From Clavelina lepadiformis (taxonomy: Eukaryota > Chordata > Ascidiacea > Aplousobranchia > Clavelinidae), in contig NC_135245.1 in NCBI RefSeq assembly GCF_947623445.1, positions 16,313,501 through 16,377,500 on the forward strand: a stretch of 64,000 nt of DNA, in the 5' to 3' direction. The position numbers and the translations under genes are program-made. The notes beneath the pieces are model-generated. The model worked only from the letters and a program-made list of their open reading frames with translations, searched no databases and was not told where the DNA came from. Below, piece by piece: positions 963 to 29,904 of the stretch (position 1 is its first letter; each line of letters opens with the position of its first letter).

Positions 963-1049
963 TAGTATACAAGTGCAGAACCACAAGATGCCTTTGTGTG
1001 CTATACCCGAGCTACTCCAATTGTCATCTGGTTGTGTACTTGTATACTA
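963..1049 (+). mobile_element. Short TIR element (MITE), family copy 1
   Basis: The ends are inverted repeats: TAGTATACAAGTGCAGAACC on the left, mirrored by GGTTGTGTACTTGTATACTA on the right, in an element of about 87 bases. The paralogous copy in unit 2 (about 17913-17984) has lost its right end. A third, unlinked copy lies upstream of L2HGDH at 35170-35264. No coding capacity. The transposase family cannot be assigned. Confidence 0.6.
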
Positions 1050-1649
1050 AACCCAATTGTTCTAAATCTTTGTATGTGTCATCTAGCATAGCAAAAAGTC
1101 TTGTTATTTGTTTTTGCATTTACAAAATAATTTTTGTGTATATTTGTTATATATATTATTTCCAGAAAATAAAACGCAAGGAATAAAAAGGCAACATAAA
1201 TTAATTATCGACTCTTATCTGAGTTACAGTTGCCGTTTTGGTTTGGGTGGTAAGATTTTTTCAATCGTTTATACTTAACCATAGAAATTGTCGTCCTACA
1301 TTAATGCTTTTTTAAATTGCAAGCTTTCTGTACATCAGCTTGTAAAGATTTCCCTTATGTGAGTACTGTATTAATTTTTTTTGAAAAATGTTGCCTAGGT
1401 ATTTTACAAAATTTTGAATCCTGCGCTTTGGTTTTATTTGATATGACTTAACAATTCGGCAAGCGATTTGCACTTTTTTCTGATTAAGATTCGCAATAAT
1501 CATAATGGTAGCTTATTCTAATAAAAGCAGATAAATACCTTGGTTTAGAAATGCGTTTGGCAAATGCTAATAACATATTTTATTAAATTTAAAGTGTGTG
1601 GTGAATTTGAGATACTAAAAGCTTAAAAAAAATATAGAAAAAGTGCAAA

Positions 1650-8109: not shown

Positions 8110-8340
8110 TTGCCAATCCTTTGTACATATGAACCAATACCAATACGATTGAAATGCTATTCATACTTCCAGCCAACCAAGTCAACCGTTTTTTGATCAA
8201 AACAACTTCATTAACAACAATGACCTGCTCTAGACAAGCTTTGAAACTTTTGAACTTCATCGTTATGACTGATGTATATGACCTTTTGGGAAAATATTTT
8301 GTAATAGGTGTTTGTTAGATTTCAAATTCAGCACTTGTAA

Positions 8341-8346
8341 AATAAA
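8341..8346 (+). promoter_or_regulatory. Poly(A) signal of the unit 1 RNA-binding protein gene
   Basis: AATAAA lies 232 bases after the stop codon. It is conserved in unit 2 at 25553-25558. Confidence 0.6.
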
Positions 8347-9502
8347 GTGGATTGTACTGTAACATTAAACCATGTTTCAGTTGTTTATCGGAATGGACTA
8401 TTTTTGCATTTTTTTAAATGTGTGGACAACATGTAAAATTAAAAAATCTGCCAAGAAATTGCATTAAAAATAAGTATTGTAAATTCATTGAGTCTCATTA
8501 TTTAGGCAAGTGTGAACATTTAAAGAGTTTTGGGGTACAGTAATTTGTAGGATGTGTGTTCCATATTCAATCACAAGGCTGCGGCAGCAATTAACTGTTT
8601 TTATTTTAAATGAAATTTTTCTCTGGGACGCCCACTCTTGTGGATATGTTTCTACAGAACTAACCATGAAAGTGGGCTAGCATGTCATGTCCTTGGAGTA
8701 GGATGTAACTAACCAGCAGATGGCGAATGCCTATAAGTGATTAGTATTATTTTCAACTTGAGATAAGAAGATATAGGAATAATTTAATTAATGAACATTG
8801 TGTACAAATAATTGATAAAGTCGATTCCCTAAGCATCGGTCGTAAATTCAGGTCAATATACAATTATAGGCATTTGTATACCGTACGTAATATTTAAAAT
8901 CAAAACTGCTTTACTCCGTTTCTACTCGAGTACCGGGTATTATGACGTAAAAATATCGCTTGACTCATCGCAATTATTTCCATCAACAACCTTGTATTCC
9001 CAGCGTTTTTCTATGTATTCTCTTCTTGTTAGTAAGTTTTCCCTAAACCCGAGGAAAAACGAGAACCGCAATTGCAAAATTTGATCGAAAAAGAGCATTT
9101 TTACATAAGATCAATCGCTGACTTTTTTGTCAGATGGTAAAGTTACACTGCTTCAGATGGAATATTGTTTTCCCGTAATTTTTTTTACACACGTAGTTTT
9201 AATAAGTGTTTATAATGGTAGTAGTATAGTTACTCAAATAAAAGTAGGCCAGTTTCCAATTTGAATTGGTTTTACATTAAACCTAGGCCATTACACTAAC
9301 GATAATGACAATATTTACTCGAACATAGTAGACGAATACTTCAACTTTTCGCCCGTTTTTACTGGTTTGGGTTGATCAGGGTTTAAATGACGCAACGCCC
9401 TATCAGAGAAATGTGATCCGCAAACCAATTTGGCTTTATTAATGTACAGAACTGTGCCCACATGGAGATTGCTGGAGAGTGTTGATTAACTTTGTTTGAC
9501 TT

Positions 9503-10173
9503 GCAGAGGTTAATTTATCTGTCTTAACTTATGTTACGTTAACTTAATTAACCTGTTGAATTGTTATCTGACTCTATTGTTGCGTGCGGTTAAAATACGC
9601 TAACCTCTTTTCAGCCGAAAGTTTTTAATATTACAACAGAAATAATTTACAAGAAAGGGTTTTTATTGTAGGTGCTGTGCACTTTCTCAATATTACGCAT
9701 CATCAAAAACATAGTAATATCACTGCTTATAAGATGTCTATTGAGTTGCAATCACCATGGCTATCACCATGACTATCACGATGACTAGAAAGCTCATCTG
9801 TTCGCTTCCGTGATTGTGCCTCTCTGTCTGACCGCTCGCTGGTAAAAGTGCGATCTTATAAAACTTTAAGCGATGGTAATGGGGGTTACATGTAGTTGAA
9901 GCTGACACACAGATAAATAAAATCAGTATAAAGTTAAGAAGCGGGCATTTGCAATAAAGATTTCTTATCAGCACAGATGCTGGAAACAACCTGGGAACGT
10001 ACTAAAGGGAGTGTTCACACGAAGTTATTCAGAGCAAGTTTTAAATATCAAACGACAGTTGAAGTATTATCAAAAAACCAGCTCATAAACTTCAATCAAT
10101 AACTGGAAAACACTTTTCCAAGAAATGATGTAACGGTATTAAAAGATGCCACCCGTCAGACCGCTATAGACTT
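9503..10173. other. Segment present in unit 1, missing from unit 2
   Basis: About 670 bases are bounded by the short direct repeat GACTT, one copy of which remains in unit 2 (near 27375). That is compatible with a short-repeat-mediated deletion in unit 2. It contains a threefold 12-base repeat of the form ATCACCATGACT at about 9750-9785. No gene seen. Confidence 0.5.
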
Positions 10174-10798
10174 AACCTGGTGAGCAAGCGGTTGTACCAG
10201 GGTAACCTGTTCAGTGAGTGTAATGTTTCTCACATTTGAGGTCGCAGGCATAGAACAGCAACTAAAAATTTGCTTGAGACTGAGAGCCCGTCAAGGCTTG
10301 GGCTGAGACAATCGTTTTTCATTTATCATAGTCCGGAGTGCTTCCAACTGAGCATACATTTCGTCATTACATTAAATCCATTATGTTCACGACAGTTTCT
10401 TTGTGGAGACGACATAACGGCTGTCTATGCTTGTACTAGCATATGTAGGGATAAACTGGGTCAGTCTATGCGGGATTGAGACCGCAAAGATTGCCAGTAA
10501 ATTTTTATTGCAGAATTTAATTAATTAAAATTTACAAATATTGTAAATGTAGTTCTTTTCAAAATAGTTTTGTAATGAATTTTCTTGGTTAGGGAATACC
10601 CCTTGCATAAAAACATTTAATTTGAGATTTTAATAAGACTTGAAATCGACAAGACTGCTTCACCAACATATTGTAATGTTCAAGGCTGGTAAAAAGACAT
10701 ACAAAGAGTTACATTTTTGTTAAATTTTTTATCGGTTGTGATAAATGCTGGGTTGAGTTAACGTTTGCTTACCTTCTATAAGTAAAAGGGTTAAAGCC

Positions 10799-11354
10799 TG
10801 TAATGAAAATGTTGTTTATTGTACCTTAAACTGTAAGGTTGATCCACTTCACTACTATATTTGGTTGTCGAATTATATTTTGTGGGTGATGATGTATGAG
10901 TCTCACAAAGTCGTTGTTTGCTTTTCTCACCCACAGACTTAATTGTTTAGCTTGATGAATTATAATTATTGTCTTGTGAGGTTGTCTAACTTGACACTGA
11001 TCTTCTACAAATAGAGTTAACAATTGTTACACAAGCATCACATATATAGCCGACTGATTATATTGAAGCTTCTTTGAACGAATACTTTTAGATAAAACAT
11101 TGACATAGCAGAAAGAGCATAAAGACGTCGATGTTACAACGTTTATCTTAGAAGACTGTATGCATTTGACAACTGTGTATATTAATAATACTAATGTGCG
11201 CAAGATAGGAAGCCACGACATTTATGTCACAACTCAAAACAGAAAACAGGTAGTTATCGGTATGGCATTTATATCACATTTCGTAATGCCGATTTCCGTA
11301 AACAAGTATTCTATGCGGCATTCAATTTGCAAGCTATTTCATAATATCATCAGA
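10799..11354 (-). repeat. LTR of the Gypsy element (3' LTR in element orientation)
   Basis: It begins TGTAATGAAAATG on the plus strand, like the partner LTR at 14929 (TGTAATGAAATG). The two remain alignable along their length, best over the last 350 bases. A C-rich stretch just inside (about 11380) would be the purine-rich primer site on the element strand. Confidence 0.8.
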
Positions 11355-12617
11355 TAGTATCAACATATATCAACAACTCCCCCCAGAAAATCGCTTAAAA
11401 TGCAATTTTATGATCAACATAAAAGAAATTCGCGATAGGCAATTTCAGCTATAAGACCATTGAATTATATTTCAGCATCTGGTTTTCCCAGGATAGCTGT
11501 GTGAAAATTTCACTTGGAAATAAGCTTATTACAAAATCAGTTAAATACGTTTTGTTATTGACATTCAACATAGTGTATGGGCGTTAGCCTCGGGTATGTA
11601 CGTCTTTACCTTCTGAAAACAACCGCTATGTTTAAAGCATAACAAAATAACATAGAGAAATATTTCTCTACGGCATGGCTTAACCGTTAGAGATTATGGA
11701 AATTAAGCCATCATCAATTAAGCGTAATCTGAACAATAACGCTATTATAAACGTAATATCATAATGTCAGAGATTCCTACCACAGGTCCTTTTGTTACTG
11801 GCCTTTTCCTAGTGCTGGTTCGAAGAGACCTGCAGTTAACTATAGGATTGTATATTTCATAATAGTAAAAAGTGGGCACGTCCACACAGCAGTAAAGGCA
11901 TCGGTAAAATGACATGTTCGACAACGGTCAAGGCATAATCACAATTATCAGTGCTTCTGGCCGAAGGCAGAAAATACAAAGACACGTCAAACCGAGCAGA
12001 AAACAACGTAACACTCCTCCCCCTCCAATAAATTTTTCTTCGACATTACTTGAACATCAATTAGCAAAACTGGTTATAAGCTAGGTATGTGGTAATTAAA
12101 ACGAAAAAATAGAATATAATCACGAAGAAACCGCTAGTACTTCTGTTACCTAGATGAATTTGTGAATCTTGAAGAAAATTTTCGACCACGCATGCCACAG
12201 TGGGACACATAAAAAAAGGTTTACAAAACGATTCCCCAAACACAGCAAAACGGTGCACTATAGCGAAAAAAAGTATGATTATCACACTAATAAAACAAAC
12301 AATCAAGGTACAGCATTTCTATGTAAATAATGTAAACACAAACACTACATTGAAAACCAAAGCAAAATTAAAAATAACTTGTTATAAAAGAAATTCAAAC
12401 ATATGTTGACTATACCAAAACAATAAGGTGGGTTACAAATCACGCTTCATGCCAATAATACTACAAAAGGTATAAAAACGTAAGATTGATAGCTAAAATA
12501 GACGGTATATAAACCGATCCGAAATAAAATACCATCATACTTGGTAGGCCTATGTGTGAAACTGTGGTATATAAAATACAAATCATAGGAAAATAGTCAA
12601 CAACATAACATCAAGCA

Positions 12618-14590
12618 TCACACAAATATACAATTAATACGTTTCGACGTCTGGGTAACGAATAGGGTGAAGTCGACCGATATTTCGGGAGTTACAAACG
12701 ATATTAAAATTGTTACTCTCGTGACGATTTGCATTTGATCGGTTATTAAAAAATAAGCTCCAGTCAAGGGCTTGTCCAAGTGCTGGGGAACATCTTCTGG
12801 GTGACTATCTTGACTATAGGAAGGCATCGTATGATGGTCACCTCTGCTTAGCTTTAGCCTGTTAAAATATACTCTTAACGTCCGTTCATGATTGCGAATC
12901 AGATAATTTGCCGGTGGAAAAGTTTCAACAACTTCGTAGGGGCCTGAATAAGGGAGGTGAAACTTTCGCTTTTCATCTTTTGATATGACAGTGTTTCGCA
13001 GCATGACGTTGTCTCTTACTTTAAACTCCGCTTGTCTCGATACCGACTTGTCGTAACGTGCTTTCATGGATTGCCAACGTTGGTCGAGTCTCGTTTTCAC
13101 GACTTCGTGGACAAGCCGCATACGGTCTTGTAAATCGAACATTGCCGACGATGATGGATGACTTGAAAGCTGTCCAGTCATCAAATCTTCTGGTAACCTA
13201 AATTCTCGTCCAGTCAGAAGGAAATGTGGAGAAACACCTGTCTCTTCGTGTCGACTGGCGTTATAGGTCGCACAAATTGAGGAGAGAGATTTATCCCAAG
13301 ATAGTGGATCGCATTGGACATAATTCTTCATGACGGAAAGGATGCTTCTATTGGCCCTTTCAACCGTTCCCAGAAGGGTGGTATGCGGTGGTTCTTAATT
13401 TCTTGCAGCCGAGAAGATTAATAAGCTCTTTAAACAACTGGCTCTCAAAGTTTCCTCCTCGGTCACTGTGAATACGCTCCGGAACACTATGAATCGTCAT
13501 CCAGTTATGATAGAGAACAAATGCTGTTTCTTGGGCTGTCTGTGATGCCATTGACCAAGCCTACATATATTTAGTGTACATATCAGTGGCTACCAGTATG
13601 TAACGGCTTCCTGAATGTGTCACAGGAAGTCCTCCAAGGACGTCAATCTCTATTCTTTGCATCGGCTCCAACTCATCGGAAGGTACCAAGGATGCTCTTG
13701 GTGTTCTAGAAGGAGCTTTACGTAAATCACAGAGTGTGCAACACTCACAATACTCACGGACATCCGTTTTCCAGCGGGGCTAGTAAAATCGTATTGAAAC
13801 TCTTTCAGCTGTTCTATCAACACCCATATGTCCTCCTCCAAGGGATGCGTCATGTAACTCTTTCAGGACTCTCGGACGCATTTCTTTAGGAACCAGTAAC
13901 TGAAGGCGTTTTCCTTCCAATGTGTCTTCCAGACTGCGGTACACTGGTGAATTAAAAAAATCTCCAAACAAAGACCAGTAATGTCGAATCTCACTGCTCA
14001 ATTTCAAGGGGGTCTTGCGCCGGCTCTAATCCAACCTAGTACTACGAAAAGATGTTCGTCGGACTTTTGAGCTTGTGAAATTTATCAGGAGTCCAACCAA
14101 AACCCTCACGAAGATCAATACTTAAAACACTTTCCGTCGAGGTCTTACCGGTTTTAAAGTTTTCTTCAACTTCAAACGTATACTTCTCAGGATTCAATTC
14201 GATGCTATTAGAATCACTTATTTTGCTGCTCTGTGGCCTTCTACTAAATGCGTCTGCATTGGAGTGCTTTGATCCAGAGCGATGTATTAATTTAAAATCA
14301 AAATCAGCCAATATTTCAAACCAGCGCGCACATTGACCGTATGTCTCTTTTGCTGTCCACAGCCACCGTAACGAAGCGTGGTCCGTGCGAAGAAGAAAAG
14401 GTGTGCCAAGATAACAACGAAATTTCTGCATCCTAAAAACAATTGCCAGGAGTTCCTTCCTCGTGGTGGAATATTTTCTTTCTGCTTTCTTTCTCACATT
14501 GCCGTCCTTCTTTTTCACCAACACAACTGGGCTAGACCAAGGCGACTGTGAGTGACTAATAACGTTATCATTTAACATATCCTTTAGCAA
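12618..14590 (-). pseudogene. pol remnant of the Gypsy element: RNase H and integrase segments
   Basis: On the minus strand there are RNase H-like peptides, with the TDHASLRWL and SKHSNADAFSRRP signatures typical of Ty3/Gypsy. They are followed by integrase core peptides (HSDRGGNFES, TAYHPSGNG) and a C-terminal integrase stretch. The order RNase H then integrase is the Gypsy order. The region is not intact and is treated as a fossil. Confidence 0.85.
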
Positions 14591-14928
14591 CTCATCTACC
14601 TTTCATTTGTTTTCTTCTGACATTAGGCTTTACAAAAACATACAGCAAAATAAACTATACGCTATGATAGATAGAGAATAAACAAACAAAAAATCATTAC
14701 TGAATGTCCAAATACCGATCAAGCTTCTTCACTGTACTGCCACGTCTCGTGAATGGTTCAGCGTGCGATGTTTGTCGGTCATTTTTGCATCCAAAGTTGT
14801 CTGAATTCAATGAGTCTTCGAAATTTGTAGTCGGAAATCACTAGACTTCTCTTAACCTCAATTTTAATTGTTCATAGCTTCCTCGATAAAAGAAAAGCGT
14901 AGTTCTCACCGAACTCGGCGCACTAGAT

Positions 14929-15498
14929 TGTAATGAAATGGTTGGTTTATGGTTGTTGAACTTGACTGGTTTAGCCACTCCAATACAATGTTTGATTGTC
15001 TAATTGTTTGCTGCGCTCGATGGTATATGATTTTCAAAGGCCGTTTTCTTGCTTTATCAAACCTTAGAATTAATTGTCCACCTTAGCGAATTATTGTCTT
15101 TCGAAGGTGACAACAAGGTTGTTTAACTTGACACTGATCTTCATCAAATATAGTTCTCAAAATTTATTACACAAGCATCACAACTGTATAGAGTATACTG
15201 ATTATATTGAAGCTTCTTTGAACAAATACTTTTAGATAGAACATTGACATAGCAGCAACAGCATAAAGACGTCCATGTTACAGCGTTTATCATAGTAGAC
15301 TGTATGCATTTTACAACTGTGCATATTAATAATACTACTGTGCGCAAGACAGGCAGCCACAACATTTATGTCACAACTCAAAACAAAAAACAAGAAGTTA
15401 TCGGTATGGCATTTATATCACATTTCGTAATGCCGATTTTCGTAAACAAGTATTCTATGCAGCATTCGATTTGCAGGCTATTTTATAATGTCATCACA
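14929..15498 (-). repeat. LTR of the Gypsy element (5' LTR in element orientation)
   Basis: Partner of the LTR at 10799. On the element strand it starts TGTGATGA and ends TCATTACA, a short inverted pair typical of LTR ends. It abuts host sequence AGCC shared with the empty site in unit 2. Confidence 0.8.
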
Positions 15499-15556
15499 AG
15501 CCTTTCTAAAATGAAGATCACAATAAATTGTAACATTTATTTCGTGCAATGCAGAA

Positions 15557-16188
15557 ATGGCTTTATATAGAGTTGGAGAAGTGGTTTTGTCAAAAGCCCT
15601 TAAGCAAAAGGGTTCTGTTAAAAATCTGGTATTTGCATCAAAATACAGAAATGTGAAAGAATTATATGCTCTTGTTTGTGAGACCTTAAAATATTCCAAA
15701 GTACTTGATGAAATTTTTGTGTCTAGTAACTTTTTGAAACACTGCAAAGGACTCAGCAAATCACTAGCAAAATTGCTTGTGTATGATTTATTGTTTGGCA
15801 AAGGTATACAATGTTCTGGAAAATACAAAAGGGCAGTAATGACGAATAAGTAATTATTGCAATTCACCCTGGCAAGAATCAAAATGAAAATTATTACCAA
15901 TGCTGAACTAATAACTGATCCAATAGCAAACGTTCAAATTCCAAAATATCTCCGTGTAAATACTTTAAAAACAACTCTTAAATCTTTGACCAACTGCCTA
16001 AAATGTTAGGGTTACAACTTATTTGAAGGAAACTGGAAGAAAATATGATTATCAAAGAATTCAAGATTGACGAACAAATTGATAACTTGCTTGTTTTCAA
16101 AGAAAAAGTGAATTTTCATAAACACGATTTGTACTTGAATGGTCATTTAATTTTCCAAGACAAAGCGAGTTGCATTCCAGCACAAGTT
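15557..16188 (+). pseudogene. NSUN5 5' fragment, pseudogene made by the tandem duplication
   Basis: This matches the first 212 codons of the intact NSUN5 at 28534. The frame is open for 97 codons and then stops at 15850 (AAG TAA where the intact gene has AAG TCT). A second in-frame stop lies near 16008, and a small length change sits near 16044. The match ends abruptly at 16188, before the SAM-binding motif, where duplicated upstream sequence of unit 2 begins. No catalytic motif remains, so it cannot encode a methyltransferase. The acceptor-like AG just before its ATG is kept. The Gypsy element lies immediately upstream and separates it from any leader shared with unit 2. Confidence 0.92.
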
Positions 16189-16503
16189 TGTGCTGTGATG
16201 TGCCTTTTTAAGAAAAATATTGCGCCAAAAAAACAAGAATGGACTTAAATGCCCGACCAAAAATCTGGAAAATGTTTATGTCTTATCGGCTGAATTCTGT
16301 TCATGCGATAAACAGATCACACATAATCATCTTTAAACAACAATTTTAAAGAATTTTACACGCGAAGTGAATGTTCAAGTCTGTTGACATGTTGTTGAAA
16401 ATCATGAGTGTCAACGTACTGGTAATTAAGATGCTTTTTGGCCAACATTCAACTTCTGTTATTAACGTCGTTGCATTCGTTAGGTTTTATTACATTTTGA
16501 ATA

Positions 16504-17015: not shown

Positions 17016-18539
17016 TACTGATGAAAGTTATTGCAAGTAGCCTACATTCTTTGATATCAATTTCTTAATCTGAAAACAATAAGATCAATGACGCTTGGAA
17101 ATATCTCACTGGGTTGATTTCTCAACCATGTTTCAAAACGATTGCTTTAATATAAAAAATGCTTCAACAGGGGTATGGTTAACTTTTTCACCAAACCAAG
17201 CGTCTTAGCTGCTTGTGTTGGTTACAAGGCGCTGTATTGTTATTTCGCTATAGACTTTTAAGTTAAAAAGTTGAATACAATGCAATGTTTGGCGGCAATA
17301 AAGGACTGTGATATGGGCAAAACTACCAGACTTAAACGATAGCACAGCACATAGATTTACAACTGTGTTAAATTACCACATCTTCAAAAACGAAGGAAAG
17401 ACAGTTAAAATAAGACTGGTTATGATAATTCGCTATTTAACACATGGCTATCTTATACACCCATATATTTTGTTTCGATCTGAGTAAACTTCCTTTGTTA
17501 ACAGAGCTAGTGAAAAGTGGAAAAGCAATTTCAGAAAAAAGCAAAGGTCTACCATATATATACAAAATACATATTTATACAAAACGTTGACCGATGCATC
17601 AGCAAAAAAGGAACCGATCCATAGGTAAAGTTTAACATCGGCATCGGTACGTCTCTATTGTTGATTTACCCCTATTTTTTCGGGGATGGGCTTTCTAATT
17701 ATACACATTAAAATGAGCTACACCCATACTATTTGGAATAAAATGTTTTGAATTTAGAACTTTGAACAATAACGAAACAAGAACGCTGACTTTCTTGTTT
17801 TTAATTGAAAAGGGAAAGGTAGATAAAAATCATGCCACAAACAAATTATTGTTACACTCACAACTTTTCACACAATATTCGTTGCAAACTACCATAGTCA
17901 GTTTTTCGGGTCGAGTATAAAAGTGCAGAACCACAAGATGCCTTTGTGAGCTATACCCAAGCTTCTCAAATTGTCATCTGATTAAACCCAGTTGTTCTAA
18001 ACCTTAATATGTGTTATCTAGCATAGAAAAAAAGTCTTGTCATTTGATTTTGCATTTACAAAATAATTTTTGTGTATATTTGTTATATTATTTCCAGAAA
18101 ATAAAACGCAAGGATTAAAAAGGCAACATAAATTAATTATCGACTCTTATCTGAGTTACAGTAGCCGTTTTGGTTTGGGTGGTAAGATTTTTTCAATCGT
18201 TTATACTTAACCATAGAAATTGTCGTCCCTAATTAATTATCTTTTAAATTGCAAGCTCTCTGTACATCGGCTTGTAAAGATTTCCCTTTTGTGAGTACTG
18301 TATTAATTTTTTTGAAAATTGTTGCCTAGTTATTTTACAATATTTTGAATCCTGTGCTTGATTATGATGTGCCTTTGATATGACTTAACAATTTGGACAG
18401 CAGTTTGCACTTTTTTCTGATTAAGATTCGCAATAATTATAATAGTAGCCTACTCTAATGATAACATATTTTATTAAATTTAAGTGTGTGGTGAATTTGA
18501 GATACTAAAAGATTGAAAAAAATATAGAAAAAGTGCAAA

Positions 18540-21500
18540 ATGTCATATGATTGCCAAGTTTTTGTGGGAAACGTTTCTCATTATCACCTTGAGGAAAACT
18601 TGATGGGAACGTTTGGGGGGCATCATAGAGTTAAAGAAGTGGAAATGATCTGCGACAGAGAAACTGATATACCTCTTGGCTTTGCATATGTCACCTTTTT
18701 TGAGCCAAAAGAAGTCCAGCTGGCAATCGATGAATTCAATGGGACAGGATACATGGAACGGAAACTCATTGTACGGAAGGCGGACAGACGAAATGATAAA
18801 TTAAATTATCAACGAGAGGGCGATGGACTGGGTTGTGGCGATGACAATTATGGAGGCAGAAGATCATGTGGTAAAACTCACACTAACATTTATACCTATC
18901 ATTTTTACCAGCAGATATTTTAATTGCAAAACAGTGTTTTAACGTTTTGCAACCTATGAAATGGTTTGCACTAATGTATGGTCAAATGTCCTAATTAGGC
19001 ACACTCTTTTGGAAACTATCCAGTTACACATTTGCTTGGGCATCAACCTGCAATGAGTCATGCTTGGGTGAAAGGTTGTACCTACCTACACCTGTTAATA
19101 ATAACATTTTTAATAATAGCAACTACTTTTCATGCAAATAACAATTTGCGCTCCATTTTTGTTGCGGGCAACAAACATCAAAGGGTATCGCAATAGTTTG
19201 CGAATAGACTGATTGTGTGAGTATAGATGTTAAAAAAAATGATTCGCTCAATTTGTTTCACTAAGCCTGTGCTAAGTAAACAGACGTTGCACAACTAATT
19301 ACAATGACATACAACTGTACTTTTTGACTATTCTCGGCACATTAACTAGCTAAGAACTTAATTAGTCACTCTGATTAGTCTGAAACTATCCTTGTTTACA
19401 ACCTCGTGGGGCTAATGCTATTATGTTTCAATGCCACTTGTGGTTCAATTTAAGAATCATTGCTTTTTGTTAATAATGTGTGCTATGTATGGCAGGGGGA
19501 CGGTACCCCCTAGGAGATTGTCCATTAGTAGTCATTGTAAGCAAGATTAATTTGGATCAACCCAACTCATACACTCAATTTAAAAGAATTAAACAATAAC
19601 GCATATAATGGTAAATCTCCTGAAACCTCATCAGTAGGGCGATTATTTTTTGACTTTCAAAAATTTGTCAAATTTACAACGTTAGGGTGTCAAAAATTGT
19701 CAAAATTTTTTACAAACTGCATTTTTGTGGTTTCATCGAACTTGCACTGTAGGTGAACTTGTCAATTTACATTGTACACCTTGTAGCCTACTTTATACTT
19801 TTGTAAATGGCCCATTGTCTACTTATTGTGAATCAGCTCTTACCTTCGGTTTTGCTTTAGATAGTTCAATAACTTCATGTATCTTTAGTTTAGACCAGCG
19901 GTTCCCAAACTTTTTTTAAATTTTTGCCTGGTGGACCCTTTGCAATTATTTTCATAATTCGCGGCCCTATAAAAATCAAAGTATGCTATAGGAAAAATGC
20001 AAAAACCACACCAATGAAAGAAAAAGCATTCTCATTGCGGACCCTCTGAAACTGCTTTAAGGACCCTAGTTTAGGAACCGCTGGTTTAGACAAATGTATT
20101 GACCTGTTTTTGTTGTGTCTTTGTTGCAATTTTTTGGCATTGATTTGTGATTAGCTCATTTCCCTTTTCAGAATAGGCTAGGTCTGCGTTCAGATTTTTG
20201 CCCTTCTTTACTACAATAAATTTTAACTTTTTGTACAATAATGCGTAATTTAAATACTTGAGTTCTTGATATACCGGTATGTCAAAAAAAGTTTTTTAAT
20301 GTCAAAATTTTCAATTTTTAGGCCAAAAATAATTGCCCTACTCATCAGTGATACTGAAATTTAAAAAAATATAATTGAGCACCCCATTCGTCTACTTTCC
20401 GCCCATTAAAATGGTCCACAGTACGGGATATTTTCCCATTCCAATGGTTGAAAGTATGCCTTTCTTACCCTAGAGTAAGATATATGCTTTTGGAATGGGG
20501 AGAATTTTACTTCGGCATAAGTATGGTTTGTGAACCCCATTTGTCTATTTTTCTGCCCATTAAAATGGACCTGCTTTCAGCAATGGGGTTTCCCACAAAC
20601 CATATTTCTGCTGAAGTAAACATCTCCCCATTCCAAATGCATATATCTTACTTTAGGGTAAGAAAGGCATACTTCCTGCCTTTCGAATGGAAAAATATTA
20701 CCGCATTTTCCTCCATTTTAATGGGCGGAAAGCAGACGAATCGGTTGAATTGAGCTATTCTGTTAACCCTATAATTCCATCTGACATACATCATAGCATT
20801 TTTGCTTTGGTCTGGAAAATTTATTTACAGATGAATGTTGGAGGTTAAGATTAAAATTTGATCGATGTGACTGCAACACCCAAAACGTTTAATAAACATT
20901 TTCAAAACTTGTGTATTAGCAAAGCCAGAATGCCTGTTATGACATCATAACTGGTCATTTAAGCATCCTAAGGTGGACAATACTTGCATGTTCCAGGGCT
21001 TTTCAACCAAATGAATACAGTTTAGGCTTAAATCAACTTGTTACACTTAATTTAAGAGCGTTTTGTGGTAGGTAAATTGACAGTTTAAATATAGCCTTGG
21101 AATTCTTGTAATTCATTTATATTTATAAAAGAATTTATTTTAAACCTAGTCACTAACTTGATATATACTACTGACATTTTGCACTGGACATGGGTGGAAA
21201 TAACCTGCTTCATGAAACATATTTCAAATGTAAAACAAAGCTTAACATCTAACAAGGCATCAAAGAAAAACGGGAAAAACTTCAGTCACGTAAAAAATTG
21301 AGTCCAAAGATTCCTCTCAAGACCGCTTACTTGACCTGTGTTTTTTTCTGTACAAACTTCAAAATGCATACCAAATCCAAGTGCACGTTATTGCTTCTAA
21401 CTCTGCTGAAGGTTTTTACAATCTTTTACATTTCACCAATAATGTTATAATAATTAAAAACTATTTCCATTGATCGTGTCACAACAAATGTCAGAAAACC

Positions 21501-24500
21501 AATGCGAAAAATGTTATTGGCCTAACACCAGGATCGGATCTGGAATTTTTTTAGTGGGATGTTCTAAACGTCACAATTTTTGAATATGGGGATTCATCAA
21601 GAAGTCAAGATATGGGAATTTTTTCAAGTTTTTTTGATGCAAGTTTACATTTTTTCTTTTCCCCATCCATAGTGTATATGTCAGTGAACTAAAAATATTA
21701 GTGCTCTTTTTGAAAAGACTAAATTGTTCTGAGCCGAGCTTAATCCATTGCAAGGGTTGTGGGTTACCAAGGGGTAACCCATGTCATTCAACACGTTGCT
21801 CGTAGGTCATTAATACTTAGCAAAAATTGAAACGTGTTCATTAAGAATACCTGAACACGTTATTCAAAAAGTGATTTTTACATCACATCTCCCACGATGT
21901 TTTAATGCACACGGACGCATGTAACTATACAAATGTAAGGCAATATCTGTATTTCACCATAGCCTTTGATGTAAGGTGTTTAACAAAACCAGGAAATCAG
22001 GCAACGTCACAGAATTTACGTAAAAAAACTTACTTGCAGAAAATAACACGCAAGGAATAAAAAAGTCTACACATTTTTTTGTGTGTAAAATTGACACCTG
22101 TGCTGTATTTTTTGTTTGTGTTAGTCATTTTTTCAGCTTAGCCTTGTCGACATTGGTAACAACAACAACACAAACTGTATACGCCACCGCTTTCATTAAT
22201 AAATTAAAGCGCTAATCGTTATAGTAAAACGACATGTTCTGGGCACGTCTAATCTTTTTTTGCTAATTGTTACTAAAATCCGAAAGATGAATGCTTGTTG
22301 TGCGGTCGAGCGAAGTTTTCTTTAAAGAAAAACAAACAAATATTTGCGCAAGGACCCACCACCTGTCAATCAATTGTGGGCTATCAATCAATCAAATGTG
22401 TGTCAATCAATTGTTTAATCAAATTACCTGGACACATGTAGTATCATAATTATGATAACAATACCAAAACGATGTAATTGTGATTAGTATATATCCAGTA
22501 CAACGATTGCAGAAATAGATATATTAATTAATAAGAATGAAATGAGATAACCACAATGATTACTACTAACCAGATAATTGTATGGCAAATATTGACCTTT
22601 CGTATCCAGTTATATTTTGTTTGTGTCTCTTAGCTTTTAATGGCCTGGTAATGTTGTTGCTCATGTCTGACAGATACCACAAAAGTGTAGAGTCTTCCAG
22701 TATCGCTGAGCAATCAATGTATTGTGTTTATTGTTTATCCTGAATAATATATTTCGTTTTAATAATTATATATTTCGTATAATAAATTAATAATATTTCG
22801 TAAAGCGAAATGACGATGCGACATCTAGAAGCCGATATGAGCCACTGACACGCTTTGTGCGGGGAAATTTTTAAGTTTTCATTCCCACCAAAGTATTGTT
22901 GGTAGTACCAATGTGGTTTCAATTCCAGGGGGCTGCACTCAAACCAGATACGAATATTTGAAAGAGAGAAAAGAAAAATTTGGGCAATGGGCAGAGAGAA
23001 AGGCGAGAAGCCGGACAGAGGAAAATATGCGTGCCTCTTGTCATTAAAACATTTAGAAAATGCACTATGCCGCATGTTTGCATTGAAACGAACTACTGCT
23101 TGTTTTTAACTAAAAAAGTAAAGAGTACTTGCGTAATTTATTTTAATTACTGATGGTGGTGTTTCAACATCTCATCACCGCGGCTGAATCCACCTGCCTG
23201 CAAAAATATGATAAGGTCAGACTGCATGCAGTGAGCTTATCTTTAGTGTGTTAGATGAAAGATAAGTCAACGAAAAGACATAAAAGCGATATTTTTATAA
23301 TAAACGAAGTGCATTTTTTGGGGTGGGAAAGTTGTGTGCGCCCGTTTTTGGACATTTGACCATACATTGGAAAAGTTTCAGTACGAATGAAAATCGTTTA
23401 TGTATGTCTTGTAAAATTTTCTTTAGGAATCTTGATATTTTTGTTAATGTTTACATAGATCTATATAGATTTTCTTAGTCATTTATCAGTAATTATTTTT
23501 CTATAACTTGGTATGTATGGCTGCTTTTAGTTGTAAAGATATATATTTTTTTCAGAAATGTTTTCATATCTTTTACACGTCTTAAAACCAGTTAAAAATC
23601 TGTTGAAAAACAAGGAACTGTTGCGGATTCATTTGTAGCATGCACCGTGCCATGAACTAACTTGTGTGGGCACGGCACACGCAAGCAATTGCTAAATGAT
23701 GTTACTATTGCACCTTACATAGCTCATGCAGCCTGTTGTTAAAGATAGGCGGCTAGGGTAGGAGAATGGGTATACAAAAGTTGATTTTAGCAATTTATGG
23801 TTTGATTGGAGTTGGATTTAGATTAGGTTACTAAGTTATAACACAGGTCAACAAGAAACTGTAAAAAATAACTTCAATCGCACGATTTTTTCCACTGCAA
23901 TAGTACAACCATCCGTAAAAGACAGTCTTAGGTATGTTATGTTTAAAACGTTGAAATCGGCTTTATTTGTAAGTCTTAACCTCCCGCATTCAGTTGTAAG
24001 AAATACTCCAGGCAAAATCAAAGATGCTACAATGTAAATCACATAGAATTAAATGGCAATAAATAATAACATAAATAAATAAATAACATAAATAACTAGC
24101 ATAAATAACAGCATAAATAACAAACTATACCTTTAAATTTTGGTATCACACAATGGGAACTGCTATCATACGCATGATTACAGAATTAGGGCTGATTGCT
24201 TGAGTTAGATTAATCCAACTTAATCTGCTTTCTAAGTTAATAAGTTGTTAGTGATCATGAAGACTTGTTCGCCAAGTTCATACAGGGGCTGGCCAACCTT
24301 GCATTAAAGTAGGCTCCCATGTAAATAGAAGTTGGCACGAGCAACACTCCTTTCAAGGGTTATTTGCTTGTCACTCAAATGTACAAATTGGATACAAATG
24401 GTCGGGTTGAAAAAAATATTAGGGTTTTCGACTTTCATAAAACCATAATTTTATGTAGTGAATAGATAATTGAATTATGTATATGAAAACATGAATAATA

Positions 24501-25341
24501 AAATAAATGAATGCTTTGATAGTAGTTTCACGCACAATTTTTGCTAAGCACAAAGTTGATAGCGAAAATTGAACAATATAATTTGCAAATCAAAACCATG
24601 TTACGGTGAATTGGTTTAAACACTTTTTTTACTGATGAACATTTTTTCCAAACGAAATTGCTTATTGTAACTTTATCGAAATCGTATGTGGTCAATAATA
24701 ACTCGATTTATGGTAAAAAAATGATTATTACGGCAAATCGCAAACTTCAACGTACGAATGTGCCCGAGTGAAAATATATTTTAATAGGTACAAAAGAGAG
24801 CGAGAGCAACATAACGAGCGCACTCAATTTTTTATGCAAGAGCAAAAGCATGAGCCATGCTCTTTTTCATTGGTGGGCAACGCTCTATTTGAAAACATTG
24901 CCCGGCTTTGCTTGTATACACGTACATATAATATATTTACATAATTATTAGGTTTTTTTTACAGCAAGCATATTTTACTCTATATACACTACATTTAAGT
25001 AAAACAAACAATAAAATAAATGCAATTAAACAGTACCTTTTTAACCAGTTAAATCATTTATGAGTTGTATTTAAGCAACAATATTCAAAATCCAAAGTAT
25101 ACCATTTGTTAATATAACCATGAATCATCTTTAAACTCGATTCAATCATGTGCACTCTATATTTTTGTTCAGTTGATACATTCTAAATTGTGTATCATTT
25201 TAGGCTTAAAAGTTCACAAATCTACAATGATCCGTATACACATCTTGTAGGCATTTGGTGTTAAACATTGTGCTTTTTGTCAAATATTTTTATTAAATAT
25301 ATACTCTTCTAGGTGGTGGCAGTGGCGACGGTGGACACTGA
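18540..25341 (+). CDS. Rapidly diverged RRM protein, unit 2 copy of the CIRBP-like gene
   Basis: Exons 18540-18870 and 25313-25341 join at splice sites identical in position and phase to unit 1, giving 119 residues with no internal stop. RNP2 is VFVGNV and RNP1 is LGFAYVTF, so the RRM aromatic positions remain. Only 40 of 84 RRM residues match the unit 1 protein, and the glycine-rich tail is reduced from about 68 to about 35 residues (NDKLNYQREGDG...). Differences are nearly all amino-acid changing, while surrounding non-coding DNA is about 90-97% identical. The leader and poly(A) signal are conserved, so it may be expressed. It could be a neofunctionalised gene, or less likely a non-functional copy that kept its frame by chance. 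Confidence 0.75.
19635..20340. mobile_element. hAT-like non-autonomous element, unit 2 only, with a nested element
   Basis: It is flanked by the exact 8-base duplication CTCATCAG (19627-19634, 20341-20348) and absent from unit 1. The ends are inverted repeats, TAGGGCGATTATTTTT and AAAAATAATTGCCCTA. The length is 706 bases, or 510 without the nested insertion at 19896-20083. No coding region. The TAGGG end with 8-base duplications fits hAT. Confidence 0.82.
19896..20083. mobile_element. hAT-like MITE nested inside the 19635-20340 element
   Basis: A 188-base element with ends CAGCGGTTCCCAAACT and AGTTTAGGAACCGCTG. It is flanked by the exact 8-base duplication GTTTAGAC (19888-19895, 20084-20091). 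It inserted after its host element, which itself came after the duplication. Confidence 0.88.
20381..20747. mobile_element. Foldback (long inverted repeat) element, unit 2 only
   Basis: A 367-base insertion flanked by the exact 8-base duplication AATTGAGC (20373-20380, 20748-20755). Two arms of about 150 bases are inverted copies and would fold into one hairpin. The end motif CTTTCCGCCCATTAAAATGG occurs at both tips. A diverged third copy of the end (20534-20568) sits in the loop, so the element looks like a head-to-head composite. No coding region. Confidence 0.85.
21481..21920. other. Unit 2 partner of the near-identical intron tract
   Basis: Matches 3903-4343 with two substitutions and one indel. 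See that entry. Confidence 0.75.
22279..22832. mobile_element. Unit 2-only insertion of unknown family
   Basis: About 554 bases replace a direct join in unit 1 (near 4695). It contains repeated TCAATCAAT motifs (22355-22425) and an AT-rich right end with repeated ATATTTCGT. I see no clear terminal inverted repeat or target duplication, so insertion is inferred only from the empty partner site. Confidence 0.5.
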
Positions 25342-25569
25342 AGGGATAGATATAGTGACCGCTATTGATTTGTACATATGAACCACTACCTAGTCAACCG
25401 TTTCTTGATCAAAACAACTTCATTAACAACAATAGCCTGCTCTAGACAAGCTTTGAAACTTTTGAACTTCATCGTTATGACTGATGTATATGACCTTTTG
25501 GGAAAATATTTTGTAATATGTGTTTCTTATATTTCAAATTCAGCACTTCTAAAATAAAGTGGATTGTAC

Positions 25570-26193
25570 TGTGGCAGTCGTGATAGTATTTGCAATAATT
25601 TATGCATTGGCATTCTAAAAAATTCATTGGGTGTGTCTCCAGTTAGATTCAATGAATATTTGAAGTGCCTTCTACGTAGTTAAAGCGTACGAGTTCCATA
25701 CCGACGTAGTTGAAGTGTGTCAAGTAGCTATTGTGTTTCTCGATATAAAATCGATAGTACTATGTGAAAACGCTTAGATAATGTACAACAAAGACACGTG
25801 TTATATGTGTCATGGTAAAAGTAGCGCAGCTGTCGCTCATTGGTGGATACAGTGGTATAAAAACTAAAGTTTGGTCAAAATCGTTCTGTTTCTTCTTCCT
25901 GGTTAACTTTTCGCAGAGTATCAGTTTTACCTTCTGGACTGTTCATTACTGAATTGAAGTTATAGCTTTATTTGAATGTGAAAGGATGATGAAAATGTTT
26001 CCGATGTGAATCAACAATATTTTGGACAATATAGCAATTAGACTTTATGAATCTGGTGTTGATTTTAAGAAACAACATAGAGAAAGCAGGCGCAACGGAG
26101 TCAAAGACACAAATGTCTAGGAGTTCTAAAAGAAAGACTAATAGCCTTTGGCTTTAGGCCAACGTAAAAACAATCCACATCGCCAAACCCACA
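25570..26193. mobile_element. Candidate solo LTR (fossil), unit 2 only
   Basis: A 624-base insertion begins TGTGGCAG and ends AACCCACA. It is flanked by a 4-base duplication GTAC (25566-25569, 26194-26197), and unit 1 has the empty site. TG...CA ends and a 4-base duplication fit an LTR. A TATAAAA-type box at about 25857 would be the LTR promoter. No second LTR or internal region is seen. It lies 11 bases after the poly(A) signal of the diverged RNA-binding gene. Family (Gypsy or BEL/Pao) not decided; relatively young, since it postdates the duplication. Confidence 0.6.
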
Positions 26194-27513
26194 GTACTGT
26201 AACATTAAACCATGTTTCGGTTGTTTATCGGAATGGACTATTTTTGCATTTTTGCAAATGTGTGGACAAGATGTAAAATCAAAACATCTGCCAAGAAATT
26301 GCATTAAAAATAAGTATTGTAAATTCATTGAGTCTCATTATTTAGGCAAGTACATTAATTTGTAGGATGAGTGTTCCATATTCAGTCACAAAACTAAGGC
26401 AGAAATTAACTGTTTTTATTTTAAATGAAATGTTGCTCTGGGACACTCACTCTTGTGGAGATGTTTCTACTGAACTAACCATGAGAGTCGGCTAGCATGT
26501 CCTTGGAGTAGGATGTAACTAACCAGCAGATGGCGAATGCCTAGCCGCGTGTTTAGTATTATTTTCAACTTGAGATAAGAAGACATAGGAATAATTTAAT
26601 TAATGAACATTGTGTACAAATAATAATGGATAAAGTCGATTCCCTTAGCATTGGCCGTAAATTTAGGTCAATATACAATTATAGGCATTTGTATACCGTA
26701 CGTAATATTTGAAATCAAAACTGCTTTACTCGGTTACTATTAGAGTACCAGGTATTATGACGTAAAAATGTTGCATGACTCATCGCAATTATTTCCATCA
26801 ACAACCTTGTATTCCCAGTGTTTTTCTATGTATTCTCTTCTTGTTTGTAAGTTAAGTCATTGTAACCCTGTAAGTTTTCCCTAAACTCGAGGGTAATCTC
26901 CGAGGAAAAACGAGAAACGCAATTGCAAAATTCAATCGAAAAAGAAGCATTCTTGCATAAGATCAATCGCTGACTATTTTGTCAGATAGTAAAGTTACCC
27001 GGCTTCAGATGAAACATTGTTTTCCAGTAATTTTTTTCCACACGTAGGCCTATAGTAAATGGTTATAATGGTAGTAGTAGGCCTATAGTTACTAAAATAA
27101 AATTAGGCCAGGTTCTAATTTGAATTGGTTTTACATTAAACCTAGGCTATTACACTAACGAAAATGACAGTATTTACTCGAACCCTCTTTGCTCGAACAT
27201 AGTAGAGTAATGTTTCAACTTTTCGCCTTTTTACTGGTTTGGGTTGTTCAGGATTTAAATGCCGCAACACCTTATCATAGAAATGTCATCCGCAAACCAA
27301 TTTGGCTTTATTAATGTACAGAACTGTGCCCACATGGAATTTGCTGGAGAGTCTTGATTACCTTTGTTTGACTTAACGTAGTGAGCAAGCGGTTGTACTA
27401 GGGTACCTGTTTGGAGGGGGTGTGATGTTTCTCACACTTGAGGTCGCAGGCATAGAACAGCAACTAAAAATTTGCTTGAGACTGAGAGAAACGTTTTTTA
27501 TTTCCCGTAGACT

Positions 27514-28016
27514 CAGGGGTGTCAAACTCAATCGCACCAGGGGCCAAAACTCAAAACTTATTTAACGCCGCGGGCCGGTCAAGGATAAAATTTGATTAAA
27601 CATTTCGTGACAAGAAACATGAGTTGGAACAGGCAGCGAAACAACACCAAATTTTTGATGTTTTTGACGATTTTTGTCTGGGCTATTTTTGATTAATTAT
27701 TCTTCTCTTACATCGGTATGTTTCATTTTTCTCTTTGCAAAAGCATTAAAGAATTAACAAACAATAAAGAAAAAAGCAGCCCAGATTACAAGCGTTAGAA
27801 TAAATCGATTTATTCTGTCGTATTGTGGGGTAACTGCTGTGCTGCTGTATTTTACGATTTGTTATAACCTTGTTTCTTGCTTGAAAAAAGTAAGTTTTAC
27901 TATACAATGATCTCGCGGGCCAGAAATAGTTCTATGTATAAAATAGCATTGCGGGCCAAGTTTTAATGTAAAGCGGGCCGGATGTGGCCCGCGGGCCGGG
28001 AGTTTGACACGTATGC
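27514..28016. mobile_element. hAT-like non-autonomous element, unit 2 only
   Basis: It starts CAGGGGTGTCAAACTC and ends GAGTTTGACACGTATG, an imperfect inverted pair. It is flanked by CGTAGACT (27506-27513, 28017-28024). GGGCCGG/GGCCCGCGGGCC blocks near both ends resemble those of the 2916-3199 element. About 503 bases; no transposase seen. Confidence 0.75.
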
Positions 28017-28533
28017 CGTAGACTGTAATGCTTCCAAAAACCATGAACGTATGTTACGTTCACGGCAGTTTCTTTGTGGAGACGGCGTAAGGGCTGTGTA
28101 CACTTGTACTAGCATATGTAGCGATAAACTGGGTCAGTCTATGCGGGATTGAGACCGCAAAGATTGCCAGTAACTTTTTATTGCAGAATTTAATTAATTA
28201 ATTAAAATTTACAAATATTGTAAATGTAGTTCTTTTCAAAATAGTTTTGTAATGAATTTTCTTGGTTAGGGAATACCCCTTGCATAAAAACATTTATTTT
28301 GAGATTTTAATAAAACTTGAAATCGAGAAGACTGCTTCACCAACAGATTGTAATGTTCAAGGCTGGTAAAAAGACATACAAAGAGTTAAATCTTTGTTAA
28401 ATTTGTTATCGGTTGTGATAAATGCCAGGTTGAGTTAACGTTTGTTTACCTTGTATAAGTAAAAGGGTTAATTAAAGCCTTTCTAAAACGAAGATCACAA
28501 TGAATTGTAACATTTATTTTGTGCAATGCAGGA

Positions 28534-29904
28534 ATGGCTTTATATAGAGTTGGAGAAGTAGTTCTGTCAAAAGCCCTTAAGCAAAAGGGTTCCGTCAAAA
28601 ATCTGGTATTTGCATCAAAATACAGAAATGTGAAAGAATTATATGCTCTTGTTTGTGAGACCTTAAAATATTCTGAAGTACTTGATGAAATTTTTGTGTC
28701 TAGTAAGTTTTTCAAACACTGCAAAGGGCTCAGCAAACCACTAGCAAAATTGCTTGTGTATGATTTTTTGTTTGGCAAAGGTATACAATGTTCTGGAAAA
28801 TACAAAAGAGCAGTAATGGCGAATAAGTCTTCATTGCAATCCACCCTGGCAAGAATCAAAATGAAAAAGAAAATTATTACCAATGCTGAACTAATTACTG
28901 ATCCAATAGCAAACGTTAAAATTCCAAAATATCTCCGTGTAAATACTTTAAAAACAACTCTTAAATCTGTGACTAACTGCCTAAAAAGTGAGGGTTACAA
29001 CTTATTTGAAGGAAACTGGAAGAAAATGGGTATCAAAGAATTCAAGATTGACGAACACATTGATAACTTGCTTGTTTTCAATGATAAAGTGAATTTTCAT
29101 AAACACGATTTGTACTTAAATGGTCATTTAATTTTCCAAGACAAAGCGAGTTGCATTCCAGCACAAGTTCTAAACCCACAGTCAAATCAAACTGTAATTG
29201 ATGCTTGTGCAGCCCCTGGAAACAAAACTTCTCATTTATCTTCACTGATGAACAACACTGGAACAATTTATGCATTTGATCTGGATTTGAAACGAATCAG
29301 AACTATGAAAACTTTGTTGGATAGAGCTGGTGTTGCTAATTGTGAAGTAACACAATCTAACTTCTTGCACGTTAAAAAAGATGACCTTAAGTACAAGGAT
29401 GTGAGATACATTCTTGTTGATCCTTCCTGCTCAGGATCAGGGATGGTGCAGCGGTTGTCACATTTGACTGATAATGCAGAGAGCTCCAGTGATAAACGTT
29501 TGTCTTCATTATCAAAGTTCCAACTCCAGGTTTTGAATCATGCCCTGTCATTTCCCCAAGTAGAAAGAGTTGCGTATTCAACTTGTTCTATTCATGACAT
29601 CGAAAATGAAGACGTAGTGAAGCAAGCACTGGCAAATAACAGCAAATTCAAACTTGTCAAATGTTTACCTACCTGGACTAGAAGAGGCCACGCTCTTAAA
29701 GGATTTACTGACGAAGCAGAAATGTGTGTCAGATGTCAGCCGGAGCTGGATGGAACCAATGGATTTTTTATTGCTTTGTTTGAAAGAACTCAATCCTCTG
29801 TTATTTGTCCTGCTGAACATGTTCAAGCTAAACTGATTAGGCCGAGAAAAAGAAAGCCAAGAAAAAGCAATGGCAAAACAGACAGTAATAAAATAAAGGT
29901 TTGA
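28534..29904 (+). CDS. NSUN5: 28S rRNA cytosine-C5 methyltransferase NSUN5
   Basis: A single-exon frame of 456 residues. NSUN5 (yeast Rcm1) methylates one cytosine of large-subunit rRNA with S-adenosylmethionine in the nucleolus. The SAM motif DACAAPGNKT is at 223-232, the PC-type motif DPSCSGSG at 296-303 (Cys299), and the TCS motif YSTCSIHDIENED at 348-360, with the catalytic Cys351. The lysine-rich tail (RPRKRKPRK) could be a nuclear signal. The start is the ATG right after a plausible splice acceptor (TTTTGTGCAATGCAG), so the message probably gets its leader by cis- or trans-splicing. An AATAAA lies at 29950. Length matches animal NSUN5. The duplication breakpoint falls at codon 212 of this gene, and only this copy is whole. 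Confidence 0.95.
   Translation: MALYRVGEVVLSKALKQKGSVKNLVFASKYRNVKELYALVCETLKYSEVLDEIFVSSKFFKHCKGLSKPLAKLLVYDFLFGKGIQCSGKYKRAVMANKSSLQSTLARIKMKKKIITNAELITDPIANVKIPKYLRVNTLKTTLKSVTNCLKSEGYNLFEGNWKKMGIKEFKIDEHIDNLLVFNDKVNFHKHDLYLNGHLIFQDKASCIPAQVLNPQSNQTVIDACAAPGNKTSHLSSLMNNTGTIYAFDLDLKRIRTMKTLLDRAGVANCEVTQSNFLHVKKDDLKYKDVRYILVDPSCSGSGMVQRLSHLTDNAESSSDKRLSSLSKFQLQVLNHALSFPQVERVAYSTCSIHDIENEDVVKQALANNSKFKLVKCLPTWTRRGHALKGFTDEAEMCVRCQPELDGTNGFFIALFERTQSSVICPAEHVQAKLIRPRKRKPRKSNGKTDSNKIKV

What the first reader, a model, noticed from the sequence alone, without database searches (positions are those of the whole stretch)
18540..18870. Duplicate RNA-binding gene whose protein has changed far faster than its own introns
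Codon-by-codon comparison of the two RRM exons (1650- and 18540-) shows 44 of 84 residues changed. Among the 40 unchanged residues only one codon differs (TCT/TCA). The leader, intron and downstream DNA of the same two units differ by about 3-10%. Amino-acid-changing substitutions are thus greatly in excess of synonymous ones, while the frame, phase-1 splice site, RRM aromatics and poly(A) signal are kept. Relaxed decay or conversion from a distant paralogue should also have altered synonymous sites. Strong diversifying selection, perhaps towards a new RNA target or an inhibitory partner role, is the leading reading.
Basis: partly seen in the sequence, partly recalled or inferred. Interest (0 to 1): 0.88.

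Follow-up and report, generated by a model that had tools for sequence, protein, structure and literature searches.

The report
Sea-squirt gene copy remade by selection
In a sea squirt, one copy of a recently duplicated RNA-binding gene has had about half of its key domain's amino acids replaced while the DNA around it barely changed, which points to strong natural selection for a new protein surface rather than to decay.

Summary
The window is Clavelina lepadiformis chromosome 6. A tandem duplication made two CIRBP-like RRM genes. Over the 84-codon RRM they differ at 71 nucleotides and 44 residues; 1 of 40 unchanged residues has a codon change. Shared noncoding DNA differs at 521/8338 sites, 6.25%. 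Codon likelihood without the introns gives dS 0.070, omega 6.65; omega = 1 is rejected (2dlnL 12.6; 0 of 1000 neutral simulations). Polarised changes: 28 unit 2, 4 unit 1. Controls are ordinary: decayed sibling copy (omega 1.0-1.3), NSUN5 fragment of the same duplication (dS 0.08). No better genomic donor was found. Unit 2 stays RRM-like beyond chance but lost the RNP1 arginine, the RG tail and the C-terminus. Best reading: a retained, neofunctionalised paralogue under strong positive selection. Weak points: lower bound of omega about 2, NG86 ratio 3.4, signs of conversion between units, no expression data, selective agent unknown. The kind of event is known; its extremity in a usually conserved RRM is unusual.

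The parts
1650..2058 (+). unit 1 exon 1: conserved-type RRM plus glycine-rich tail; near-ancestral copy
   Evidence: Pfam RRM_1 73.8 bits; ORF and donor after base 409
8051..8109 (+). unit 1 exon 2, tail to stop
   Evidence: acceptor and reading frame seen in sequence
18540..18870 (+). unit 2 exon 1: fast-evolving RRM and shortened tail
   Evidence: 71 nt and 44 aa differences in 84 codons; RRM_1 43.7 bits; omega 6.65
25313..25341 (+). unit 2 exon 2, ending at a new TGA; protein of about 119 aa (hand count)
   Evidence: sequence
25553..25558 (+). kept AATAAA of unit 2 (unit 1: 8341-8346)
94..16188 (+). duplicated segment, left copy (unit 1), with an LTR element inserted
   Evidence: blastn of the two halves
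17016..29169 (+). duplicated segment, right copy (unit 2), ending inside NSUN5
15498..16188 (+). truncated, broken NSUN5 5' fragment; same-age control for coding DNA
   Evidence: 30 of 639 differences, by codon position 9/5/16; dS 0.08 over its first 118 codons
28504..29904 (+). NSUN5-like open frame, source of the fragment
   Evidence: Pfam NSUN5_N 108.3 bits, Methyltr_RsmB-F 117.6 bits
21524..21931 (+). intron tract nearly identical to 3946-4346; probable recent conversion tract between the units
   Evidence: 2 of 400 differences against 6.25% overall; diverged copies elsewhere in the genome

Best explanation
Unit 2 is a functional, neofunctionalising tandem paralogue of a CIRBP/glycine-rich-RBP type single-RRM gene. 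After duplication of a segment of about 12 kb (about 6% neutral divergence ago), unit 1 stayed near the ancestral sequence and unit 2's coding exon took a burst of amino-acid replacements under positive selection. The RRM profile and the stacking aromatics (F8, F48, Y50) were kept while loops, helix faces and the tail were remade. Shown: the excess of replacements, its concentration on unit 2's branch, the open frame, an RRM profile kept beyond chance, a predicted RRM fold. Inferred: that the protein is made; that loss of Arg46 (RNP1), Arg44 and the RG tail shifted it from a general RNA-binding role to a new RNA or protein partner, perhaps in germline or immune conflict. The agent of selection is not identified.
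For: ML omega 6.65, dS 0.070, 2dlnL 12.58; that dS agrees with the independent flank distance 0.065, and with t fixed to the flanks omega is 7.1-8.0, 2dlnL 134-144. Bootstrap under omega=1: 0 of 1000 reach the observed LRT or omega. Neutral simulations with multinucleotide mutation, three settings of 10,000: P(<=1 synonymous codon) 0.0004-0.0076, jointly with no stop <=0.0005. Tree: stem 0.156, siblings 0.40, unit 2 5.4 (2dlnL 10.6; 12.6 with kappa 2.8). Changes: 28 polarised to unit 2, 4 to unit 1, 9 unresolved, 3 ambiguous. No indel in the 252 bp; 1.5 expected at the flank rate, 7 if the raised divergence were mutational (P 0.001). RRM profile from 20 other RRMs of the genome: unit 2 44.6 bits; of decoys with 44 random residue changes 0 of 2000 and 0 of 2000 reach it (means 12), of decoys with its own replacements shuffled over the same positions 1 of 2000. 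The 7 changes in a 21-residue core set all have BLOSUM62 of 0 or more; core versus rest P 0.002. AF2 gives beta-alpha-beta-beta-alpha-beta; Foldseek matches the hnRNP A18/CIRBP RRM at 1.2 A.
Against: No expression evidence. NG86 gives only 0.429/0.125 = 3.4; the profile admits omega about 2 with t 0.21. Against a sibling copy (m244) unit 2's pairwise omega is only 0.6, since the long purified stem dominates. In a two-class fit the slow class ran to its allowed ceiling of omega 1, so this test shows no purified class. The decayed sibling also still scores 49.3 bits on the 20-RRM profile, so a kept profile alone does not prove function. Exon ts:tv 24:47 against 302:219 in flanks, kappa 1.16 against about 2.8, is unexplained. 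Flank windows are overdispersed (index 1.65, P 2e-4, 80 windows) with a likely conversion tract, so the flank clock may run young. Position by position, the tie to columns conserved in the 20 RRMs is borderline (P 0.051). The early stop would fit loss of function. One pair, 84 codons; AF2 mean pLDDT 66, 68-82 over residues 1-80 in blocks of ten.
Confidence: 0.72

Rival explanations
1. Older duplication: ongoing gene conversion homogenised flanks and introns while the exon, under milder positive selection, escaped conversion, so its excess over introns is partly an artefact of a young flank clock.
For: A 400-base tract with 2 differences in repeat-related intron DNA; overdispersed flank windows; the LTRs of the element found in unit 1 only differ at 109 of 571 aligned sites (a few flanking bases included), more than the units do.
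Against: Exon dS by ML is 0.070, like the flanks, and 0.08 for the NSUN5 fragment; even t = 0.145 goes with omega 3. The LTRs' latter 300 bases agree at 91%, the first half much less (by eye), suggesting a mosaic element rather than an old one.
Confidence: 0.15
2. Relaxed decay: unit 2 is a pseudogene in the making.
For: Shortened tail and early stop in exon 2; the decayed sibling keeps 49.3 bits on the same RRM profile.
Against: Neutral change at the flank rate gives 71/252 with P 2e-27. The decayed sibling at C6:16397705 (-) has 2 stops, 6-8 codon changes among 38-40 unchanged residues and omega 1.0-1.3.
Confidence: 0.04
3. Local hypermutation of the exon without selection.
For: Changes spread over all six base-pair classes and all codon positions, shifted ts:tv.
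Against: Omega = 1 rejected; no indels; the excess is confined to the coding exon: 32, 25, 32 per 100 inside, 8 and 4 in the adjoining windows, though one leader window further up has 14.
Confidence: 0.03
4. Conversion or replacement from a distant paralogue.
For: Other RRM genes lie in the same cluster.
Against: By DNA the only other match is unit 1, 73% over 242 bases; by protein unit 1 44%, cluster copies 38-43%, the one match outside the cluster 25%. A donor should bring synonymous differences: unit 1 differs from the two sibling copies compared at 20 of 60 and 22 of 61 unchanged codons.
Confidence: 0.02
5. Assembly artefact: two alleles placed in tandem, or base errors.
For: HiFi assembly of a wild animal; 9 haplotypic duplications were removed in curation.
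Against: No N in the stretch, QV 67.4, the left copy ends in a truncated NSUN5 and the right one in an intact frame. Alleles this different in one exon would still need selection.
Confidence: 0.04

Closest known systems
NPIP/morpheus family of apes
   Different: Unrelated protein family with many copies; here one copy of an RRM gene
sister-or-Sex-lethal (ssx), Drosophila
   Different: Signal across species of a clade, and its authors conclude subfunctionalisation, not neofunctionalisation; here a burst on one recent branch, with introns as clock
loqs2 of Aedes
   Same: RNA-binding duplicate retained by neofunctionalisation under positive selection (abstract of PMC10809485)
   Different: dsRBD, not RRM; about 31 million years old; function known in part
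Hominin PRAME genes
   Same: Gene cluster, intron and synonymous rates used as clocks, selected sites on one outer face; pairwise KA/KS up to 1.73 (passages of PMC1262708)
   Different: Lower pairwise ratio, unrelated protein
CIRBP / RBM3 / plant GR-RBP1
   Same: RRM fold; hnRNP A18 (CIRBP) RRM 32% identity, rmsd 1.2
   Different: Unit 2 lacks the glycine-rich RG tail and the RNP1 basic residue
Snake venom phospholipase A2 genes (recalled, no call)
   Same: Exons that diverge more than introns
   Different: Secreted toxins, many copies

Membership tests
RRM domain (PF00076) | profile match above the curated cut-off | tested here: met
   43.7 bits against 20.7
RRM domain (PF00076) | beta-alpha-beta-beta-alpha-beta fold | tested here: met
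   AF2 strands and helices in that order, a prediction of moderate confidence; Foldseek RRMs, TMt up to 0.91 in the 50 rows shown
RRM domain (PF00076) | RNP1/RNP2 stacking aromatics | tested here: met
   F8, F48 kept, F50 to Y; role recalled
RRM domain (PF00076) | basic residue at RNP1 position 1 | tested here: not met
   R46 to L; K/R in 17 of 20 other RRMs of this genome. Common, not strictly defining
CIRBP/GRP class (one N-terminal RRM, glycine-rich RG/RGG tail) | glycine-rich RG tail | tested here: not met
   exon 1 tail: unit 1 67% G, 3 RG; unit 2 23% G, 0 RG. Unit 1 meets it; unit 2 belongs by descent only
CIRBP/GRP class (one N-terminal RRM, glycine-rich RG/RGG tail) | RNA binding, cold or stress response | not testable with these tools
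   no assay or expression data
Neofunctionalised duplicate under positive selection | omega above 1, rejecting neutrality | tested here: met
Neofunctionalised duplicate under positive selection | open reading frame and splice sites | tested here: met
   early stop in exon 2
Neofunctionalised duplicate under positive selection | expression and a changed function | not testable with these tools

The most novel reading that the evidence does not exclude
A housekeeping-type RRM protein was recruited into a genetic or immune arms race in a tunicate: unit 2 is a fold-preserving decoy or antagonist of its siblings whose surface is being rewritten, so that more than half of the RRM codons evolved at omega near 15 (two-class fit).
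Probability: 0.2. Interest if true: 0.82.

Novelty: new member of a known kind. Interest (0 to 1): 0.62.

Why it matters
RRMs of the CIRBP/GRP class are among the most conserved RNA-binding modules (recalled), and the stem leading to these units was under purifying selection. A copy with half its RRM replaced while its introns changed 6% is a clean natural experiment: same locus, same age, one copy near-ancestral, one remade, plus a decayed copy and a same-age coding fragment as controls. It makes directly testable which surfaces of an RRM can be rewritten and what that does to RNA choice.

Tried and rejected
Relaxed decay, hypermutation, paralogue conversion and assembly error: see rivals. 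Multinucleotide mutation as a cause of a false signal: simulated, insufficient. Synonymous constraint as the cause of low dS: rejected, since unit 1 and two of the 8 sibling copies differ at 20 of 60 and 22 of 61 unchanged codons. Rfam over the window: 0 matches. A first bootstrap gave 7 of 300 null sets over the observed LRT at kappa 2.76 (0 of 300 at kappa 1.01); I judged this poor optimisation of the null because omega never exceeded 4.39 there, and the repeat with several starts gave 0 of 500 for each kappa. A first set of profile decoys (0 of 1000 at each of two kappas) had about 53 residues changed, too many; one search matched the number.

Limits of the counts. The 21-residue core set was chosen from recalled RRM topology. 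In one search, 14 of 84 positions were left out for lack of coverage; its 20 RRMs were picked by hand from the 140 matches. The omega tests cover the 84-codon RRM only; the gapped tail was left out; the 2 stops of the decayed copy were left out of its estimate. The 80 flank windows were typed over without the 3 exon windows, the window that runs into the exon start (8 differences) and 8 short end windows. Among sibling pairs two were compared (omega 0.82 and 0.40), and the partial copy gave 1.0 and 0.4. The sibling part of the tree is poorly resolved (bootstrap 19-72).

Paper searches that bore on this gene or a like case: 2 of 2 rows seen; no paper; 15 of 16 rows; 12 of 1,369 rows; no listed title concerned it. 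sought known cases of fast exons. That is no proof that it is not in print. Of papers, PMC10884593, PMC5550911, PMC1262708, PMC6920530 and PMC7419210 were seen as passages; PMC3292462, PMC12470439 and PMC10809485 as abstract and outline; PMC2447218 gave nothing; PMC11109543 and the rest as listings only.

Full report
What it is. The window is bases 16313501-16377500 of contig C6 of a 209-Mb assembly of 95 contigs. The eight large contigs whose lengths were shown agree within about 0.01 Mb with the published chromosomes of the light-bulb sea squirt Clavelina lepadiformis, kaClaLepa1.1, chromosome 6 being 20.77 Mb; QV 67.4 (passages of PMC10884593). The paper's totals are slightly larger (210.1 Mb, 102 scaffolds). 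A cluster of single-RRM, glycine-rich genes lies there: 8 sibling copies with an open RRM exon at 16.228-16.304 Mb (3-23 of 252 bases apart), a partial one, units 1 and 2 in the window, and a decayed copy at 16397705 on the minus strand.

Check of the observation. Units 1 and 2 come from one tandem duplication (94-16188 and 17016-29169). In 84 RRM codons there are 71 differences and 44 changed residues; 1 of 40 unchanged residues has a changed codon. Noncoding parts differ at 521 of 8338 sites with 51 gap openings; the 84 codons align without a gap. The excess is that of the coding exon: 32, 25 and 32 per 100 inside, 8 and 4 in the windows beside it; the highest windows elsewhere are 14 and 16.

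Selection tests. Pairwise codon likelihood without use of the introns gives dS 0.070, omega 6.65, kappa 1.16; omega = 1 lowers it by 6.3 log units. That dS is close to the flank distance (0.065), an independent agreement. NG86 is lower: dN 0.429, dS 0.125. The profile allows omega from about 2 upward. Two site classes fit better than one (lnL -543.6 against -547.5): 43% at omega 1, which is the ceiling set for that class, the rest near 15. Bootstrap under neutrality: 0 of 1000 (an earlier, faulty run is told under Tried and rejected). On a tree with the 8 sibling copies the stem has omega 0.156, the siblings 0.40, unit 2 5.4 (omega = 1 rejected, 2dlnL 10.6); unit 1's branch has too few changes to estimate. 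Of 44 changed residues 28 are derived in unit 2, 4 in unit 1, 9 unresolved, 3 ambiguous.

Controls. The decayed sibling shows relaxed decay: 2 stops, omega 1.0-1.3, 6-8 codon changes among 38-40 unchanged residues. The truncated NSUN5 copy carried by the same duplication has dS 0.08 and omega 0.5 over 118 codons, and 16 of its 30 differences are at third positions. Synonymous sites turn over freely in this family. Genome-wide, unit 2's exon matches only unit 1 by DNA and nothing better by protein; both searches give lower bounds.

Is the fold kept beyond chance? Unit 2 scores 43.7 bits on Pfam RRM_1. On a profile built from 20 other RRMs of the genome it scores 44.6 (unit 1: 71.6). Decoys made from unit 1 by random replacement of 44 residues average 12 bits; 0 of 2000 at each of two kappas reach unit 2. 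Shuffling unit 2's own replacements over the same positions gives 20 on average, and 1 of 2000 reaches it. So the replacements were filtered for the RRM profile. The decayed sibling, however, still has 49.3 bits (its relative m244: 89.8), so this shows past constraint, not by itself present function.

What the protein looks like. AlphaFold2 gives the canonical order of elements with block pLDDT 68-82 over residues 1-80 and a low-confidence tail; Foldseek finds RRMs, among them CIRBP/hnRNP A18. Within a 21-residue core set the 7 changes are mild (L-V, L-V, V-L, I-M, G-A, F-Y, I-V), whereas both loops around helix 1 are remade (Y14H, D15Y, A16H, N17L; K27G, N28H, F29H, S30R). G43D, R44I and R46L remove the basic loop and the RNP1 arginine (K/R in 17 of 20 other RRMs). 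The exon 1 tail falls from 67% to 23% glycine and loses its RG pairs; exon 2 stops early. By general knowledge of RRMs (recalled) this should change or weaken RNA binding without loss of fold.

Interpretation. Relaxed decay, hypermutation and donor conversion each fail a test. The remaining doubt concerns the clock: a 400-base tract with 2 differences and overdispersed windows suggest occasional conversion between the units, so the flanks may understate the age. Even then omega stays at 2-3 or more. A second oddity is the exon's transversion excess (24:47 against 302:219), perhaps selection for radical changes; it is not explained. Expression is untested here.

Comparison. Duplicates with an excess of replacements, RNA-binding ones among them, are known (NPIP, ssx, loqs2, PRAME); that exons can outpace introns is known from venom genes (recalled). 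This is therefore a new member of a known kind, notable for its size of effect, for the usually conserved domain, and for its built-in controls.

Noticed in passing
window 10799-15496: LTR retrotransposon (RNase H and integrase pieces on the minus strand) in unit 1 only, with an apparent 5-base target duplication (by eye) and an empty site in unit 2 near 28471. Its LTRs agree at 462 of 571 aligned sites, less than the two units do, although it seems to have inserted after the duplication.
   Followed up: partly
window 15498-16188: Truncated NSUN5 fragment with stops and frame breaks; intact NSUN5 frame at 28504-29904.
   Followed up: yes
window 3946-4346 and 21524-21931: Two of 400 bases differ, far below the unit average; repeat-related intron DNA, probable recent gene-conversion tract.
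   Followed up: partly
C6:16397391-16397705 (L020, L021): Decayed RRM copy with two stop codons, outside the window.
   Followed up: yes
window 1200-1450: Part of the leader of unit 1 belongs to a dispersed repeat with some 48 further matches shown in the genome at 68-81% identity.
   Followed up: no
C6:16303782 (minus; L017): The sibling copy m303 lacks the GTAAGT donor found in the other seven siblings at the end of the RRM exon.
   Followed up: no
window 50015-50521 and 52260-53000: Exons of a ZIP zinc transporter on the plus strand.
   Followed up: no
window 34395-34733: Start of a FAD-dependent oxidoreductase (DAO) gene on the minus strand.
   Followed up: no
window 16188-17016: Spacer between the units with short tandem repeats (TGTAAGCCGC-type); sequence printed, not analysed.
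   Followed up: no
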